A stretch of DNA of 64,000 nt. Origin: Bettongia penicillata ogilbyi. Taxonomy: Eukaryota; Chordata; Mammalia; Diprotodontia; Potoroidae. Of this stretch, positions 15,075 to 50,085 are shown in pieces (the first letter of the stretch is position 1; each line of letters starts with the position of its first letter). The notes under the pieces were generated by a model. That model ran no database searches and was not told where the DNA came from. It saw only the letters and a program-made list of their open reading frames with translations. The stretch spans positions 13,678,718 to 13,742,717 of the forward strand of contig JAJHZJ010000014.1 in the NCBI GenBank assembly GCA_023548195.1, read 5' to 3'. The position numbers and the translations under genes were made by a program.

Positions 15075-15705
15075 AAATTTAAGAGACATAATTTCTGGGT
15101 AATTAATCGTCTTACTAATAATACAAACTTTTTATTAATAAAAGAGGTCACCAGCACTCTCAAATGCCAAAGACCTCCATGGTGGCAGATGTGGAATATG
15201 ATATTCCAGGGGGCAAAGGACCTAAAGTCACAACAAAAGAGTAACCTACTCAGTAAAACTGAGTATAAACTATATGGGAAAAAAGGGACACAAGAGGACT
15301 TTCAAGCATTCCTGATAAAAAGACCAGACAGAGATGAATAGAAAATCTGACATTAAACTTACAAGACTCAAGAAAAATGTAAAAAAGGTAAACATGAAAG
15401 AGTAATAAAATTGTTTATATTCTTATTTGAGAAGATGATACATGTAACTCCTAAGAACCTGTATCATCATTTGGGCTATTAGGAGGATTCTACAAAGACA
15501 GTGGACACAAGAATAAATGATTGCTTTGGGATGATCTAAAAGAAAAATGCAGTGGAAGAAGCGGGGGAGAGAAAGAATGGGAAAATTACCTCAGATAAAA
15601 CAGGTGTTTAAGGAAGAGCTTTTAAAATGAAGGGGGAAATGGGTAGATGGGGGGGGGCAGGTAGTGCTTGAACCTCACTCATCTGAATTGATACAAAGAA
15701 GGAAG
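15075..15705 (+). mobile_element. Old HAL1 (half-L1) fragment: ORF1 C-terminus plus 3'UTR
   Basis: The + strand encodes a degenerate L1 ORF1p C-terminus (MIFQGAKDLKSQ..., then TQEDFQAFLIKRP), which aligns with EDFQAFLMKRP in the better HAL1 at 30397-33212. It then runs straight into HAL1-type 3'UTR words (AAACATGAAAGAGTAATAAA, AACCTCACTCATCTGAATTG) without any ORF2. A much older copy than the other two. Confidence 0.55.

Positions 15706-23093: not shown

Positions 23094-23172
<79 letters not shown>
23065..23172 (+). repeat. Compound (AT)n(CA)n(TA)n microsatellite
   Basis: A short AT run, then about 16 CA units (23095-23127), then about 22 TA units (23128-23172). The open frames across it are repeat artefacts. 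It abuts the 5' boundary of the HAL1 fragment at 23173. Confidence 0.95.
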
Positions 23173-23177
<5 letters not shown>

Positions 23178-24262
23178 CTTCAGGGAAAAAAAATGGTCAT
23201 TCAACGAAATAGAGGACTGCCAAGCATTCTTCATGTAAAGACTAGAGCTGAATAGATAATTTGACTTTCAAATACAAGAATGAAGAGAAACATGAAAAAG
23301 TAAACAGGAAAGAGAAATCATAAGGGACTTACTAAAGTTGAACTGTTTACATTCCTACATGGAAAGATAATATTTGTAACTCTTGAGAGTTTTCTCAGTA
23401 TTAGGGTAGTTGGAGGGATTATATACATATAGACAGATGACACAGGGTGAATTGAATGGGAAGGGATGATATCTAGAAAAATAAAATTTAGGGGTAAGAG
23501 AGGAATATATTGGGAGGAGAAAGGGAAAATGGAATGGGGCAAATTATCTCTCATAAAAGAAGCAAGAAAAAACTTCTAATGGAGGGGAAAAGTGGGGAGG
23601 TGAGAGGGAAAAAGTGAAGTTTACTCTCATCACATTTGGCTCAAGGAGGGAATAACATGCACACTCAATTTGGTATGAAAATTTATCTTACACTACAGGA
23701 AAGTAGGGGAGAAGAGGATGAGTGGGGTTGGGGGGGATGATAGAAGAGAGGGCAAATGGGAGGAGGAGGTAATTAGAAGTAAACACTTTTGGGAAAGGTC
23801 AAAAGAGAGAACAGAATAAATGGGGAACAGTTTAGGATGGAGGGAAATATAGTTAGGCTTTCACAACATGACTTTTATGGAATTCTCTTGCATAGCTACA
23901 CATGTATAACCTATATTGAATTGCTTGCCTTGTCAATGGGCATGGCTGGGGAGGGAGGAAGGGAGAAAAGTTGGAACTCAAAGTTTGAAAAACGAATATT
24001 AAAAATCGTTTTTATATGCAACTGGGAAATAAGAAATACAGGTAATGGGGTATATAGAAATCTATCTTGCCCTACAAGAAAATAGAGGAGATGGGGATAA
24101 AGGAAGGGAGGGGGTCTAATAGAAGAGAGGACAGATAGGGGGAAGGAGTAATCAGAATGCATGGTATCTTGGGGTGGGGGAAGGGAGAGATGGGGAGAAA
24201 TTTCAGAACTCAAAATCTTGTGGAAATGAATGTTGAAAGCAAAAAATAAATTTAAAAAAGAG
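23173..24262 (+). mobile_element. HAL1 fragment: ORF1 C-terminus joined to 3'UTR
   Basis: Sense HAL1, truncated at its 5' end. It starts at the position equivalent to the last ~35 codons of ORF1 (ATACTTCAGGGAAAAAAAAT), then follows the 3'UTR of the element at 30397-33212 base by base for about 1 kb: TAAACAGGAAAGAGAAATCA, TACATTCCTACATGGAAAGA, AATTGAATGGGAAGGGATGA, CTATATTGAATTGCTTGCCT. It ends in a short A-rich tail near 24262 (AAAAAATAAATTTAAAAAAG). As in the better copy, no ORF2 lies between ORF1 and the 3'UTR. Confidence 0.85.
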
Positions 24263-30299: not shown

Positions 30300-30396
30300 A
30301 TGATGTATGACTAGATGGCAAATATATGTGAAAAATATCAGGAAGTTTTAGTAGACATGTCAGAAGAACTAATATGATGTGATCTTAGCTTTTATT
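30300..30396 (+). mobile_element. CR1/L3 fragment, left of the HAL1 insertion
   Basis: The text up to GATGTGATCTTAGCTTTTATT continues after the HAL1 at 33229 with AAGATCAGCCTAGCATCCAG, together following CR1/L3 ORF2 ('aatcttaggctgcattaatagaagcatagtgtccaga'). The LINE was therefore present before the HAL1 inserted. Confidence 0.6.
30381..30396 (+). repeat. Target-site duplication, left copy (HAL1)
   Basis: GATCTTAGCTTTTATT, identical to 33213-33228. It brackets the HAL1 exactly. Confidence 0.95.
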
Positions 30397-31442
30397 TTTA
30401 TTTTTTTCTATTTTTTAATTTATTTATTTATTTAAATTTTTACATTCATTTTCACAAAATTTTGGGTTCCAAATTTTCTCCCCTTTTATCCCCTCCCCCC
30501 ACCTCAATACCCCAAGCAATCTAATTTTCCCTATCTCCAATCTGCCCTCTCTTCTGTCATCCCTCCCTTCTCTTGTCTCCATTTTCTCTTTTCTCCTATA
30601 GGGCCAGATGACTTTCTATTCCTCATTAACTGTATGTCTTCTTTCCTAGTAGCAACAACAATACTAAACAGTTGTTCCTAAAACTTTGAGTTCCAAATTC
30701 TCCTCATCCCTCCCTCCCCACCCATTCCCTTTGGGAAGGCAGGCAATTCAATATAGGCCATATCTGTGTAGTTTTGCAAATGACTTCCCTGATAGTCGTG
30801 TTGTGTAAGACTAACTGAATTACCCTCCATCCTAACCTGCCCCTCATTGTTTCTCTTCTGTCTTTTGATCCTGTCCCTCCCCAAGTGTTGACTTCAAATT
30901 GCTCCCTCCTCCCTTTGCCCTCCCTTCCATCATTGCTTATTTCCTTCTCCCCCACTTTCCTATACTGTAAGATAGGTTTTCATACCAAAATGAGTGTGAA
31001 TTTTATTCCTTCCTTTAGTCAAATGTGATGAGGGTAAACTTCTTGGTTTTTTTTTTCCTCAGCTCTCCTCTTTTTCCCTCCACTAAAAAGTCTCCTACTT
31101 GCTTCTTAAATGACATATAATTACCCCATTCCATTTCACCCTCTTTCCTCCCACTACATTTCTCTCTCACCATTTACCTTAATTTCTTTTAAGATATGGT
31201 CCCATCCTATTCAATTCAATCTATGCTCTCTGTCTCTGTATGTGCATGCATATGTGTATGTGTGTGTGCGTGCATGCTTGTACATGTGTGTGTACATGTG
31301 TGTGTATGGACCCACCAACTACCCAGATACTGAAAAGTTTTAAGAGTTACAAATATTGTCTTTCCATGTAGGAATGTAAACAGTTCACTTCTGGTAAGTC
31401 CCTTAAGACTTCTCTTTGCTGTTTACTTTTTCATGCTTCTTC
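30397..31442 (-). other. HAL1 3'UTR
   Basis: Purine-rich on the - strand, with long GGGAGGG / GGAGAAG runs. It matches the sense copy at about 23265-24262 throughout. It includes a TG/AC-rich stretch at 31228-31305 that probably expanded locally. Confidence 0.8.
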
Positions 31443-32539
31443 TCATTCTTGTGTTTGAAAGTCAGATTTTCTTTTCAGCTCTGGTCTTTTCATCAAGAAT
31501 GCTTGAAAGTCCTCTGTTTCATTGAAAGACCATATTTTCCCCTGGAGTATTATACTCAGTTTAGCTGGGTAGGTGACTCTTGGTTTGAGTCCTAGTTCCT
31601 TTGACTTCTGGAATATCCTATTCCACGCCCTTCGATCCCTTAATGTAGAAGCTGCTAGATCTTGAGTTATCCTGATTTTCTTTCCACAATACTGGAATTG
31701 TTTCTTTCTAGCTGCTTGCAAGATTTTCTCCTTGACCTGGGAGTTCTGGAATTTGGCCACAATGTTCCTAGGAGTTTCTCTTTTTGGATCTCTTTCAGGT
31801 GGTAATCAGTGGATTCTTTCAATACTTATTTTTCCCTCTGGTTGTAGAATGTCAGGGCAGTTTTCCTCGATAATTTCATGGAAGATGATATCTAGGCTCT
31901 TTTTTTGATCATGACTTTCAGGTAGTTCCATAATTTTTAAATTGTCTCTCCTGGATCTATTTTCCAGGTCAGTTGTTTTTCCCATGAGATATTTCACGTT
32001 CTCTTCCATTTTTTCATTCTTTTGGTTTTGTTTGGTGATTTCTTGGTTTCTCGTAAAGTCATTAGACTCCATCTGTTCCATTCTAATTTTGAGAGAACTA
32101 TTAAATTCAGTGAGCTCTCGAACCTCTTTTTCCATTTGGCTAATTCTGCTTTTGAAAGCATTCTTCTCCTCATTGGCTTTTTGAACCTCTTTTACCAATT
32201 GAGTGAGCCTATTTTTCAAGGTGATATTTTCTTCAGCATTTTTTTGGGTCACCTTTACCAAGGTATTGACCTGTTTTTCATACTTTTCTTGCATGTCATT
32301 TCTCTTCCCAGTTTTTCCTCCACCTGTCTAACTTGCTTTTCAAAATTCTTTTTGAGCTCTTCCAAGGCCTGGGGCCACATGACATTCCCCTGGGATGTCT
32401 GGGGTACTGAGGCCCCACCCTCCACGTCTTTCCCTGATGGCAAGAATATGTCCTCCTCGTCAGATCCGAAAGTCGGGATCATTTGCATCTGTTCGAAAAA
32501 ACTCTCTATAGTCTCATTTTTCTTCCCTTTTCTAGGCAT
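31443..32539 (-). pseudogene. HAL1 ORF1 (L1 ORF1p-like RNA-binding protein), nearly intact
   Basis: L1 ORF1p is an RNA-binding, nucleic-acid-chaperone protein that forms trimers and packages its own transcript in a cytoplasmic ribonucleoprotein. Reading from the ATG at 32537-32539, the N-terminus is MPRKGKKNETIESFFEQM, an acidic low-complexity stretch follows, then a long heptad-rich coiled coil (32294 to about 32000, e.g. LVKEVQKANEEKNAFKSRIS). Next come the RRM-type motif RSRRDNLKIMELPES and the C-terminal domain (QVKEKILQAARKKQF, LAASTLRDRRAWNRIFQ, RVTYPAKLSI). The stop is TGA at 31443-31445. Two lesions break the frame: a frameshift near 32270-32295 and one in-frame TGA near 31805. The order and length (about 360 codons) match L1 ORF1p. 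Confidence 0.88.
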
Positions 32540-33212
32540 TTTCCCAGCCAGTTACTTGACTTCTGAGATTCCTGTCCACCCCCGCCTAGATCCGCCCAGC
32601 TAGTGCTTGGGGTCTGAGATTCAAATGGGCTTTCTGCGCTGCCAGGCTGCTAATCAATGTGAACTTTAGTTCTGGTGCTGGGGTGGAGGCAGGGCTGCCT
32701 CCCAGGCTCAGCTCCCTCAGGGGCTTTATGCAGAGACCTTCAGTAATGAAGATCCTGCCTGCTGCTGGGGGAGTTCCGGGCCGCCACTGCAGCTGCTGCC
32801 TCTGCCTCCGCCCTTGCCTCTGCTGCCGCCGCTTCCTCCCAAGGGGGCCCGAGCCACGGAGACACTCCGCTCCCCTTTTCCAGCCCAGCCGTCTCTCTCA
32901 CTGACCTGTAGCTTTTATGGGTGGAGGGACCTTCCTGGCCACCGGAGCCTCCGTCCCTGAAGCCTGCTCGGATCAGCTTCTCTGGGGCCACGGCCAGGGC
33001 AGCGCTGGGGTGGGGTCCACTTTCCGGGGCACAACGGACCCTGGGGATGGGTCTCCAGGGCTCTCTGGAACGGAAATCTCTTCCACTCTGTTTCTGCACA
33101 CCTTACAGTGATCCAGAATTTATGGGGATCTCTTTTTACATTAATTCTATGGGCTGTGGGTTCGGAGCTCGTAAACGTGCATCTTTCTACTCCGCCATCT
33201 TGACTCCGCCCC
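32540..33212 (-). promoter_or_regulatory. HAL1 5'UTR / internal promoter
   Basis: GC-rich 5'UTR. CAAGATGGCGG within the first 22 nt (YY1-type AAGATGGCGG at 33192-33201) parallels the YY1 site that positions transcription in human L1. One promoter unit (about 32672-32750, CTCCCAGGCTCAGCTCCCTC on +) is present, compared with three in the copy at 38075-39159. Confidence 0.7.
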
Positions 33213-33228
33213 GATCTTAGCTTTTATT
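33213..33228 (+). repeat. Target-site duplication, right copy (HAL1)
   Basis: GATCTTAGCTTTTATT, a perfect match to 30381-30396, directly after the element's 5' terminus. Confidence 0.95.
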
Positions 33229-38057: not shown

Positions 38058-38074
38058 TTTTTAGTCTTTCTTTT
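38058..38074 (+). repeat. Target-site duplication, left copy
   Basis: TTTTTAGTCTTTCTTTT, a perfect match to 39160-39176. Confidence 0.93.
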
Positions 38075-39159
38075 TCCCAGTTTTTCCTCCACCTGTCTAA
38101 CTTGCTTTTCAAAATCCTTTTTGAGCTCTTCCAGGGCCTGAGCCCACCCGCCACCCCCCTGGGGTGTCTGGGGTACTGAGGCCCTGCCCTCCACGTCTTT
38201 CCCTGATGGCAAGGATACGTCCTCATCATCAGATCCAAAGGTCGGGATCATTTGCATTTGTTGGAAAAAACTCTCTAAAGTCTTATTTTTCTTCCCTTTT
38301 CTAGGCATTTTCCCAGCCAGTTACTTGACTTCTGAGATTCCTTTCCGCCCCCGCCTGGATCCGCCCAGCTAGTGCTTGGCCTCTGAGATTTAAATGGGCT
38401 TTCCTCCTGCCGGCTGTCAATCAATGAGCTTTAGTTCAGGTGCTGGGGTGGGGGCAGGGCCGTCTCCCAGGCTCAGATCCCTCAGGGGCTTTATGTAGAG
38501 ACTTTCAGGAATGGAGCGGGTGGGGGCGGGGTGGGGGGCCCGCCTCCCAAGCTCAGTTCCCTTGGGGGCTTTAAGCAGAAGCCTTCAGTAATAGAGCGGG
38601 GTGGGGGCAGGGCTGTCTCCCAGGCTCAGCTCCGTCAGGTTTTATGCAGGAATCTTCCGTAATGAAGATCCTGCCTGATGCTGGGGGATTCCTGAGTCCC
38701 GGGCCGGTGCCGCCTCAGCTGCCGCCCACACCTCTGCCTCCCCCGCTTCCTGCCCCCGTCTCTGCCGCCGCTGCTTCCTCCCGAGGGGGCCTGAGTCACA
38801 GAGACGCCCTGCTCCCCCTCTCCTCCAGCCCGGCCTTCTCTCTCACTGACCTGTAGCTTCTGTGGGCGGAGGGACTTTCCTGGCTGCCGGAGCTTCCGTC
38901 TCTGAAGCCTGCTCTGATCAGCTTCTCTGGGGCCTCGGCCAGGGCAGCGCTGGGGGTGGGGTCCACTTTCCGGGGTGCGCCGGACCCTGGGGACGGGTCT
39001 CCAGGGCTCCCTGGAACGGAAATCTCTTCCACTCTGTTTCTGCACACCTTGTATTGACCCAGAAGTTATGGGGGACTCTTTTTACATTAATTCTATGGGT
39101 TTTTGGTTTCGGAGCTCGTAAACGTGCGTCCTTCTACTCCGCCATCTTGGCTCCGCCCC
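38075..39159 (-). mobile_element. 3'-truncated HAL1/L1 copy: 5'UTR plus ORF1 N-terminus
   Basis: On the - strand it starts GGGGCGGAGCCAAGATGGCG (RC of 39140-39159), as the HAL1 at 30397-33212 does. It carries the whole 5'UTR and the first ~75 codons of ORF1 (ATG at 38306-38308; MPRKGKKNKTLESFFQQM), then stops abruptly after ...GAGGAAAAACTGGG at 38076. No poly(A) tail or 3'UTR follows, yet perfect 17-bp duplications flank it. This is the reverse of the usual LINE truncation, which removes the 5' end. Because 5'UTR and ORF1 start are shared between L1 and HAL1, the parent could be either. Confidence 0.85.
38448..38672 (-). repeat. Three tandem promoter units in the HAL1/L1 5'UTR
   Basis: Units of about 75-80 bp at roughly 38448-38520, 38521-38601 and 38602-38672, each carrying CTCCC(A)GGCTCAG, a CTTTATG/AAG core and TTCAGTAAT/GGAAT. 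The copy at 30397-33212 has one. Variable numbers of promoter monomers recall mouse L1, but this is inference by analogy. Confidence 0.75.
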
Positions 39160-39176
39160 TTTTTAGTCTTTCTTTT
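39160..39176 (+). repeat. Target-site duplication, right copy
   Basis: TTTTTAGTCTTTCTTTT directly after the element's 5' terminus; identical to 38058-38074. Confidence 0.93.
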
Positions 39177-47599: not shown

Positions 47600-48212
47600 G
47601 CTTCTAGCTGGAATGTGGGGTGTGTGTGTGTGTGCGTGTGTGTGTCTGTGCAGCTCTGCCACACCCCACCTCAGTGTGTGTGTGCGCGTGCACGCGCCCT
47701 GCCACGCCCCACCTGCCGCACCTGCCGCAGGTTTCACGCCGAGGTGCGCACAATCCCCACGCACCACCGTAGCAGCGAGCGGCGCGGCTCCAGCGCACGA
47801 GCCCTCCCTCTGCACACGTCCAAGCCCACGCCCGCTTCCAACGAGCTGAGGGCCGCGCTTCAAGCAGGGCCCGATGACGGACGGAGCTGGAGGGCTCCTC
47901 AGTTTAACCCGCCCAGCTAGGGGCTGCAGGGCTCCGTCAGCAAACATAACCGAAGGGAGGAGGGCCACGAGGGAAAGGAAGGCAGGCGGGGACGGAGGTG
48001 GCCCAGGACAGGAAACGACGCAAAGCGCCCCCGCCTCCAGAGGCCTCTTCCTCCGAGCCGTGCGGGGCATGCGCCCCGGCAGCCGTGGCCTCCGCCCGCT
48101 CCCCGCGGCCCTGCCTTCCCAGAGTTCCCCGGAGCCGCCGCTGTTTGGCCCTGGAGCTCTCGGGAGCCACCGCCCTCCTCTCGTGCTGCCGGCGCCGCCG
48201 CTCCTCCTCCAG

Positions 48213-48296
48213 CCCTCACTCCCCCTGCGCCTCCTCCCTCCGCTCCTCCTCCCGCCCTCACTCCCCCTGCGCCTCCTCCCTCCGCTCCTCCTCCCG
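48213..48296 (+). repeat. 42-bp perfect tandem duplication in putative CFL2 5'UTR
   Basis: 48213-48254 and 48255-48296 are identical, beginning CCCTCACTCCCCCTGCGCCT and ending CTCCTCCTCCCG. They lie 91-174 nt before the ATG in a pyrimidine-rich stretch. Confidence 0.9.
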
Positions 48297-48386
48297 CCGC
48301 TGCTCCTCCTCCCCTCTCCTCCTCTCCTCCTCTCCAGTGCCACAGAGTGAGGATCCGCCGCCGCAGCATTTACCGTCCCTGGAACC

Positions 48387-48389
48387 ATG
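48387..48389 (+). CDS. CFL2: CFL2 exon 1 coding part (start codon only)
   Basis: The ATG in GGAACCATG|GTAAGG is followed directly by the splice donor, so the first exon contributes the 5'UTR and initiator Met only. This is the known structure of cofilin genes. The exon start is unknown; about 250 nt of pyrimidine-rich 5'UTR-like sequence precedes it. Confidence 0.92.
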
Positions 48390-49664
48390 GTAAGGTTAAC
48401 CGCGGGAGGGGCTGCAGACCGGGAGTCGGGACGGCGTCCGTGGCCCCCGGACCCCGGCCGGCCCCTTGGGCCCACTGCCGCCATTTTAACCTACTTTTAG
48501 CCCCCGCGGGGTCGTCGCCCCTAGTTCCTGGCCCTGCCCCATCCCCCACTCCTGTCCACCCTGCCCATGCTGCTGGGTGCGCCGGGCTGCTGGGGCCCGG
48601 AGGTCGCGGCCCCCGCTCATCTCCGGCCTCCCGGGTGGGTGCTAGGACGTGGGGAGGGGTCCCCTCTCCTAAGCCCCCCGAGCGGGGCGCACAGGCGGGG
48701 GCTCCTCGCCGCCGGGGGCTCCTCGCCGCCCGTTAGAGTTACTGCCAAAGCGCCGCGATCACACCAGAGCTGGTCTTGCCACTGTTTTTCGGAGGAGGAA
48801 ACCGAGGCTGGCGCCGGGCGCCGAGGCGGGACTCGCGGTCCCTGGCCCGAAACTCGCCCGCGCCGCCGCCCGCGGGGCCGGGGCGTGGGGCCGGGGCGTG
48901 GCCCCGGGGGCCGCCAGGCAGCGCCCGGCTGGAAGCCCCTGCGTTTGCCCTTCAGTTTCTCTTTGACACTGTCCTCGGTAAAATGGAGAGACCCCCGAGG
49001 CAGGAGTGGCCCGAAATGTAAAGGACCCTCCCGAGATCACCTCCCAAAAGGAGACGGGCGGGGAGGGAGGGTTTAAAAAAACACGACCTCCTGCCCGGAG
49101 CCCTCTGGATTCTCGGTCTGGGTTGTTTGGCTTTAAGGAGGAGGATCGTTGGTTCGTGCCTTGGGAAGTTAGCTCTTGATTCCCTCTCCTTATGTGGAAG
49201 CTGCCCCGGATAGGGCGATTCTTCCCTTCCCCTCTCCCCACTGCAAGTGTGGATGCGCTAATTGGAATCCCAGAGGTTTTGTTTTTTTAAAGGACCGTAG
49301 TGTTGACAAGTAAATACCGAAAATGTTTCTGCCGCTGCTTCTTAAGCCCTGACATCACCAAGTAAAATAAGATATTTCAGAGTGGGACAGTAATTCTGGA
49401 TTTATTTGTCCTTTTATCTCAGTGTTTTAACCTTCTTAAAAAGTTGATACAACAGAAATTATTACATCTAGCTAGGTTGGCCCTCCTGATATATATACCA
49501 GCTATTTAAATTTTATGACAGTACTTGATGCTCAGACTTCTAATGAATAACTTACCTTCTTTGGGAAGTCATTTCTTTTTATGTTTCGTTAGTCATACCC
49601 CGTTAAATAGGTGTTTAAAATCAAAAAGCTTTCTCTAACTTACTGTTTTTTTGTTTATTTTCAG

Positions 49665-49972
49665 GCTTCTGGAGTAACTGTGAATGATGAAGTAATCAAA
49701 GTTTTTAATGATATGAAAGTAAGGAAATCTTCCACACAAGAGGAGATCAAAAAAAGAAAGAAAGCAGTTCTCTTCTGTTTAAGTGATGACAAAAAACAAA
49801 TAATTGTAGAGGAAGCAAAGCAGATCTTGGTGGGTGACATTGGTGATACTGTAGAGGACCCCTACACATCTTTTGTGAAGTTGCTACCTCTGAATGATTG
49901 CCGATATGCTTTGTATGATGCCACATACGAGACAAAAGAGTCTAAGAAAGAAGACCTAGTTTTTATATTCTG
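49665..49972 (+). CDS. CFL2: CFL2 exon 2, ADF-homology domain
   Basis: Cofilin-2 is the muscle-enriched ADF/cofilin that binds and severs F-actin and speeds filament turnover; it acts in the cytoplasm and sarcomeric thin filaments. The exon encodes residues 2 to about 104: [18 protein letters not shown] at the start carries Ser3, the LIMK phosphorylation site that switches cofilin off. KKRKKA near residue 30 is the nuclear-localisation signal. [15 protein letters not shown] and [15 protein letters not shown] belong to the ADF fold. The acceptor is TTTATTTTCAG. The donor after TTCTG is GTGTGTAA, weaker than the others in this window. TG plus G from exon 3 restores Trp. Confidence 0.96.
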
Positions 49973-50085
49973 GTGTGTAAAACCAAAAGAAAAAAAGCAT
50001 TTTGAAATGCAAGTATTGTTGATATAGATAGTCTTATTCTTGTTTCTCACATGAATGGGATTGAATAATTATTTTTCTTCTGTAG

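What the first reader, a model, noticed from the sequence alone, without database searches (positions are those of the whole stretch)
38075..39159. A retrotransposon copy that kept its 5' end and lost its 3' end, yet has perfect target-site duplications
The copy holds the entire GC-rich 5'UTR and the first ~75 codons of ORF1, then stops at ...GAGGAAAAACTGGG with no tail. Flanking 17-bp duplications (38058-38074 and 39160-39176) are perfect, so it arrived by target-primed reverse transcription. At the stop the family continues CTGGGAAGAGAAATGAC (read in the copy at 30397-33212), whereas this locus continues CTGGGAAAAAGAAAGAC, where the last part is target site. This partial complementarity suggests the cut target DNA primed inside ORF1 on an A-rich RNA stretch. 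The result moves a complete LINE promoter without a LINE body.
Basis: partly seen in the sequence, partly recalled or inferred. Interest (0 to 1): 0.75.

Follow-up and report, generated by a model that had tools for sequence, protein, structure and literature searches.

The report
Tailless LINE-1 copy from internal priming
A marsupial jumping-gene copy kept its front end but lost everything after codon 78 of its first gene, most likely because copying began in the middle of its RNA instead of at the tail, a rare accident already described in mammals.

Summary
Window 38075-39159 (sense on the minus strand) carries a complete LINE-1-type 5' end, the 5'UTR and 78 codons of ORF1. It ends at CTGGGA without a poly(A) tail, between perfect 17-bp target-site duplications. 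The nick site CT/AAAA is one base off the L1 consensus. The two other 3' ends inspected in the window are A-rich. Best explanation: target-primed reverse transcription that began inside ORF1. Complementarity between target and RNA at the break is modest and depends on register and scoring; most variants tried are unremarkable. The break is A-rich and predicted mostly single-stranded. Such 'tailless' retrocopies are published: Noll et al. 2015 counted 90 3'-truncated human L1s with TSDs beside 708 full-length (their 'data not shown') and proposed internal priming. So this is a new member of a known kind. Whether other copies end there, and the empty site, could not be tested: the host-genome search did not complete (10 attempts).

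The parts
38075..39159 (-). Tailless LINE-1/HAL1-type copy: complete 5' end, 5'UTR, first 78 codons of ORF1, no poly(A)
38309..39159 (-). 5'UTR, G+C 61%, CpG observed/expected 0.48
38075..38308 (-). ORF1 codons 1-78 (open), truncated at EEKLG
38058..38074 (.). Target-site duplication, copy at the element's 3' end
39160..39176 (.). Target-site duplication, copy at the element's 5' end; with the bases outside it gives the CT/AAAA endonuclease site
38439..38667 (-). Three related ~75-80 bp units in the 5'UTR, all aligning to one unit in the copy at 30397-33212
   Evidence: TRF, reports 1.9 copies of period 80 at 38460-38612
30397..33212 (-). Comparison copy: 5'UTR, frameshifted ORF1, 3' region, A-rich end, no ORF2 domain found; flanked by 16-bp duplication AATAAAAGCTAAGATC (minus strand; 30381-30396 / 33213-33228)

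Best explanation
An L1 endonuclease nicked the target at CT/AAAA, leaving a T-rich DNA 3' end (...GTCTTTCTTTT). Instead of pairing with the poly(A) tail of an L1 or HAL1 RNA, that end paired with an A-rich, probably unpaired stretch just after codon 78 of ORF1 (AAGAGAAA). Reverse transcription ran from there to the very 5' end of the RNA, and second-strand joining made the 17-bp duplication. The result is a dead 'tailless' retrocopy carrying the 5'UTR and a stub of ORF1. Shown: structure, TSD, nick site, missing tail. Inferred: the pairing step, and that the template RNA was intact downstream.
For: Perfect 17-bp TSD and CT/AAAA site. Exact 5' end shared with another copy. No tail and no poly(A)-signal hexamer in the last 126 nt, while the two other 3' ends inspected (30397-33212 and the copy ending near 24258) are A-rich. 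In the best register 7 of the last 8 primer bases match and the eighth is an rG.dT wobble: 20 of 2776 template positions (real site included) and 3 of 497 other TTTT|A ends in the window do as well. With bulges and wobbles allowed: 75 of 2786 positions, 8 of 497 ends, 302 of 5000 shuffles reach the score. The 12 nt after the break hold 7 A (86th percentile over the copy, 81st within ORF1) and have mean unpaired probability 0.69 (89th percentile of the first 1800 nt, 86th within ORF1). Noll et al. (PMC5322556) describe the same anatomy.
Against: The best register needs one extra, untemplated T (38075). In the strict register only 4 of the last 8 bases match, which 867 of 2776 positions and 201 of 497 ends equal. 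Of the ten variants, only the favourable-register 8-base one is under 1%; the 12-base ones lie at 4.5-6% of positions and 9-16% of ends; the uninterrupted-run ones range from 86 to 1009 of 2776 positions (against other ends, 22 of 497 at best; three are uninformative because every TTTT|A end qualifies). The template past the break is read from a diverged copy, not the true source. No empty site or orthologue could be examined.
Confidence: 0.72

Rival explanations
1. The RNA was already broken after codon 78, and its 3' end was used directly as template at the nick (TPRT on a truncated, unpolyadenylated RNA).
For: Same final structure; one extra T at the junction fits untemplated joining; strict-register complementarity is unremarkable.
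Against: Noll et al. looked for oligoadenylated truncated retrocopies and RNA fragments with matching ends for 5S and U2 RNA and found no convincing ones. The junction shows some target complementarity in the favourable register.
Confidence: 0.13
2. A normal full-length or half-L1 insertion with a tail later lost everything from ORF1 codon 79 to the tail by a deletion ending at the duplication.
For: A join between the A-rich ORF1 site and the tail or the A-rich TSD start could leave this sequence; Noll et al. note that recombination between oligo(A) stretches is hard to tell from internal priming.
Against: The deletion would have to end within about one base of a 17-bp TSD that stays perfect, and leave at most one A of the tail. 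The ORF1 site (AAGAGAAA) is not an oligo(A) run.
Confidence: 0.11
3. The locus is one member of a non-autonomous family made only of the L1 5'UTR plus the start of ORF1.
For: HAL1-type loss of ORF2 exists in this very family, so shortened derivatives arise.
Against: No tail or own 3' end for the machinery to use. Only one of the two 5'UTR-bearing copies in the window is of this kind. A protein search with the 78-aa piece gave one relative of similar length (1 of 3 candidates), which by my reading of its shifted frame runs past the break. Weak evidence: the genome was not searchable.
Confidence: 0.04

Closest known systems
Tailless retropseudogenes (Schmitz et al. 2004, seen only as cited; Noll et al. 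2015, PMC5322556), including 3'-truncated human L1 copies with TSDs
   Same: 5'-complete, 3'-truncated, no oligo(A), TSDs, L1-like nick site, break in an A-rich and probably single-stranded stretch, some target complementarity.
   Different: Host is a marsupial and the source an L1/HAL1 RNA with a ~0.85 kb 5'UTR; the 2,402 curated human cases come from tRNAs, spliceosomal RNAs, 5S, 7SK, mRNAs and others, while the 90 such L1 copies are given as a count only.
Internal priming of L1 and Alu (Srikanta et al. 2009, seen only as a citation; review PMC4859970, passages)
   Same: Internal A-rich RNA pairs with the T-rich target overhang instead of the tail, giving a 3'-truncated insertion.
   Different: The disease example listed there (EYA1) has no TSD and a 17-kb deletion; here the TSD is perfect.
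Half-L1 (HAL1) elements (described in PMC5322556 and PMC5753468; Bao and Jurka 2010 seen only as cited)
   Same: The neighbour copy at 30397-33212 has 5'UTR, ORF1 and 3' region without a detectable ORF2.
   Different: HAL1 copies have ORF1 and a poly(A) tail; 38075-39159 keeps only 78 codons and no tail.

Membership tests
Tailless retropseudogene (criteria of Noll et al. 2015) | 5' end complete to within 5 nt | tested here: met
   Starts at the same base as the copy at 30397-33212, directly at the TSD
Tailless retropseudogene (criteria of Noll et al. 2015) | 3' truncated by at least 10 nt, no oligo(A) tail | tested here: met
   Ends at ORF1 codon 78; the relative runs on 1909 nt further
Tailless retropseudogene (criteria of Noll et al. 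2015) | Flanking TSD of 8-35 nt, at least 70% identical | tested here: met
   17 nt, 100%
Tailless retropseudogene (criteria of Noll et al. 2015) | More than 69% identity to the source consensus | not tested
Tailless retropseudogene (target logo of Noll et al. 2015) | L1-type target: TT/AAAA generally, TT/WAAAAWW in tailless copies | tested here: inconclusive
   CT/AAAAGAA: one base off TT/AAAA; two bases (C, G) off the tailless consensus
Tailless retropseudogene (Noll et al. 2015) | Target complementary to the RNA at the break | tested here: inconclusive
   Modest and dependent on register and scoring
HAL1 (for the copy 30397-33212; definition) | Encodes ORF1 only, A-rich 3' end, TSD | tested here: met
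   L1 ORF1 domains PF17490 and PF02994 (ORF1 now frameshifted); no Pfam match at E 0.01 in three sense frames of the 1046 nt after ORF1; A-rich 3' end; 16-bp duplication. A second copy shares the ORF1-to-3' junction
Non-autonomous family ending at this ORF1 position | Many unlinked copies with the same 3' end | not tested
   The genome search unreachable in 10 tries; other collections hold no marsupial genome DNA that matched

The most novel reading that the evidence does not exclude
Marsupial L1/HAL1 RNAs have a preferred internal priming site just after codon 78 of ORF1, so that bare L1 promoters are seeded recurrently, one of them about 10 kb upstream of a cofilin-family gene exon.
Probability: 0.05. 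Interest if true: 0.6.

Novelty: new member of a known kind. Interest (0 to 1): 0.22.

Why it matters
It is a clean marsupial example of a tailless L1-type retrocopy with perfect duplications, suggesting that internal priming can move a whole L1 5'UTR. It adds one case to a published class and does not change the understanding of the mechanism. It would matter more only if the same break recurred genome-wide or if the stranded promoter drove a host gene.

Tried and rejected
Premature polyadenylation: unlikely, no tail and none of 15 poly(A)-signal hexamers in the last 126 nt. Splicing: rejected, ORF1 sequence runs straight into the duplication. Endonuclease-independent insertion: unlikely given TSD and CT/AAAA. 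Chance repeat: rejected (in 200,000 random position pairs a fraction of 1e-5, i.e. 2 pairs, reached 17 matches; I take these to be picks of the same place or of simple repeats but did not inspect them). Rfam scan of the window: no match. Relatives in viral contigs and genome contigs (53 stretches matched a pattern, none a relative): none. Pfam on 8 further ORFs of the window: nothing. Bao and Jurka 2010, Schmitz 2004, Gentles 2007 and Srikanta 2009 are not held and are known here only as cited in other papers. Two literature searches for the exact case gave nothing closer (listings only).

Full report
Observation. The element lies at 38075-39159 with its sense strand on the minus strand. Its 5' end (GGGGCGGAGCCAAGATGGCGGAG...) touches one copy of a perfect 17-bp direct repeat (39160-39176) and its 3' end (...GAGGAAAAACTGGGA) touches the other (38058-38074). 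The repeat finder reports 18 bp because the base before each copy is also C. At local base composition a 17-bp match in one fixed register has a chance of about 7e-9. Outside the 5' copy the sense strand reads ...GGACCCT|AAAAGAAAG, so the nick site is CT/AAAA, one base off the L1 consensus TT/AAAA. The coding part is 78 open codons.

Relation to the family. BLASTN within the window finds one other copy with a 5'UTR, at 30397-33212. It matches in two blocks, 90% over 446 columns (ORF1 start and proximal 5'UTR) and 84% over 564 columns (distal 5'UTR), separated by extra repeat units in the element. That copy continues CTGGGAAGAGAAATGAC past the break. A protein search with most of its ORF1 found 70 proteins at E 1e-10, the two best from tammar wallaby (88% identity for P0001). 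Of the 70 I aligned 12 with the element's 78 residues; all 12 run on past the break, and P0001, P0004 and P0007 read EEKLG-REM there. The 78-residue search gave one relative (P0071, 1 of 3 candidates). Its last residues (NWEEK) are what TGGGAAGAGAAATGA gives in a shifted frame, so it seems to run past the break too (the frame reading is mine and its DNA was not seen). The host is probably a macropod or near relative; this rests on protein identity only.

The comparison copy is itself unusual. After ORF1 (PF02994 and PF17490; LINE-1 ORF1p chains in the PDB) it goes straight into about 1 kb of 3' region with no Pfam match in three sense frames, then an A-rich end. A second copy (23171-24258, plus strand) shares the passage from the ORF1 C-terminus into the same 3' region. 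These look like half-L1 (HAL1-like) elements. The source RNA of 38075-39159 may have been such a HAL1 or a full L1; the retained part cannot tell.

Mechanism. The TSD, the nick site and the complete 5' end point to target-primed reverse transcription (established for L1). There is no A tail and none of 15 poly(A)-signal hexamers in the last 126 nt, whereas the two other 3' ends inspected in the window are A-rich. If the T-rich target end primed inside the RNA, it should pair near the break. With wobbles and bulges allowed, 75 of 2786 template positions (real site included), 8 of 497 other TTTT|A ends of the window and 302 of 5000 shuffles keeping the last four T reach the real score. Without gaps, in the register that leaves one T unexplained, 7 of the last 8 bases match (20 of 2776 positions; 3 of 497 ends); in the strict register 4 of 8 match (867 of 2776; 201 of 497). 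Twelve-base scores are reached by 125-170 of 2776 positions and 44-81 of 497 ends in either register. Uninterrupted runs from the 3' end are reached by 86-1009 of 2776 positions; against other ends they give 22 of 497 in one case and are uninformative (497 of 497) in three. So pairing is plausible and modestly supported in one register, not proven, and ten variants were tried. The 12 nt after the break contain 7 A (86th percentile over the copy, 81st within ORF1) and are predicted mostly unpaired (0.69; 89th percentile of the first 1800 nt, 86th within ORF1); published breaks prefer A-rich, single-stranded stretches.

Literature. Noll et al. 2015 (PMC5322556; abstract, introduction, methods part 1 of 2 and results read) define tailless retropseudogenes and argue for internal priming over RNA truncation. 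By relaxed screening, with data not shown, they report 708 full-length, 90 3'-truncated and 5,593 3'/5'-truncated human L1 copies with TSDs. A 2016 review (PMC4859970, passages) lists internal priming as a known route to 3' truncation. PMC2912911 (passages) compares microhomologies at tailless 3' junctions. PMC2837659, PMC5753468, PMC4161310 and PMC13174262 were seen in passages. Against Noll's screen the element meets the three structural criteria tested (5' complete, 3' truncated, TSD); target logo and complementarity are inconclusive.

What is not shown. Recurrence of the break, the empty site and the age of the insertion could not be tested, because the genome search did not answer in ten attempts. 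Promoter activity is untested. The element's sense direction points away from the cofilin-family exon at 49.6 kb (PF00241).

Verdict. Real, correctly observed, reasonably explained, and an ordinary member of a rare but published class.

Noticed in passing
30397-33212: The copy used as the family reference looks like a half-L1 (HAL1-like): 5'UTR, frameshifted ORF1, 3' region, no ORF2 found, flanked by a 16-bp duplication.
   Followed up: partly
23171-24258: Second, 5'-truncated copy on the plus strand sharing the same ORF1-to-3' passage without ORF2; a third fragment lies at 15191-15402.
   Followed up: partly
38439-38667: The 5'UTR carries three related ~75-80 bp units where the copy at 30397-33212 has one, suggesting variable 5'UTR repeats in this L1 lineage.
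   Followed up: no
49611-50024: Exon of a cofilin/ADF-family gene (PF00241), likely CFL2 by recalled sequence; the 1-kb bin 48001-49000 before it is 73% G+C.
   Followed up: no
P0016 (protein): A protein filed under a Bacteroidales MAG (2.5-kb contig) is a marsupial-type L1 ORF1 (56% identity to the query), probably host contamination.
   Followed up: no
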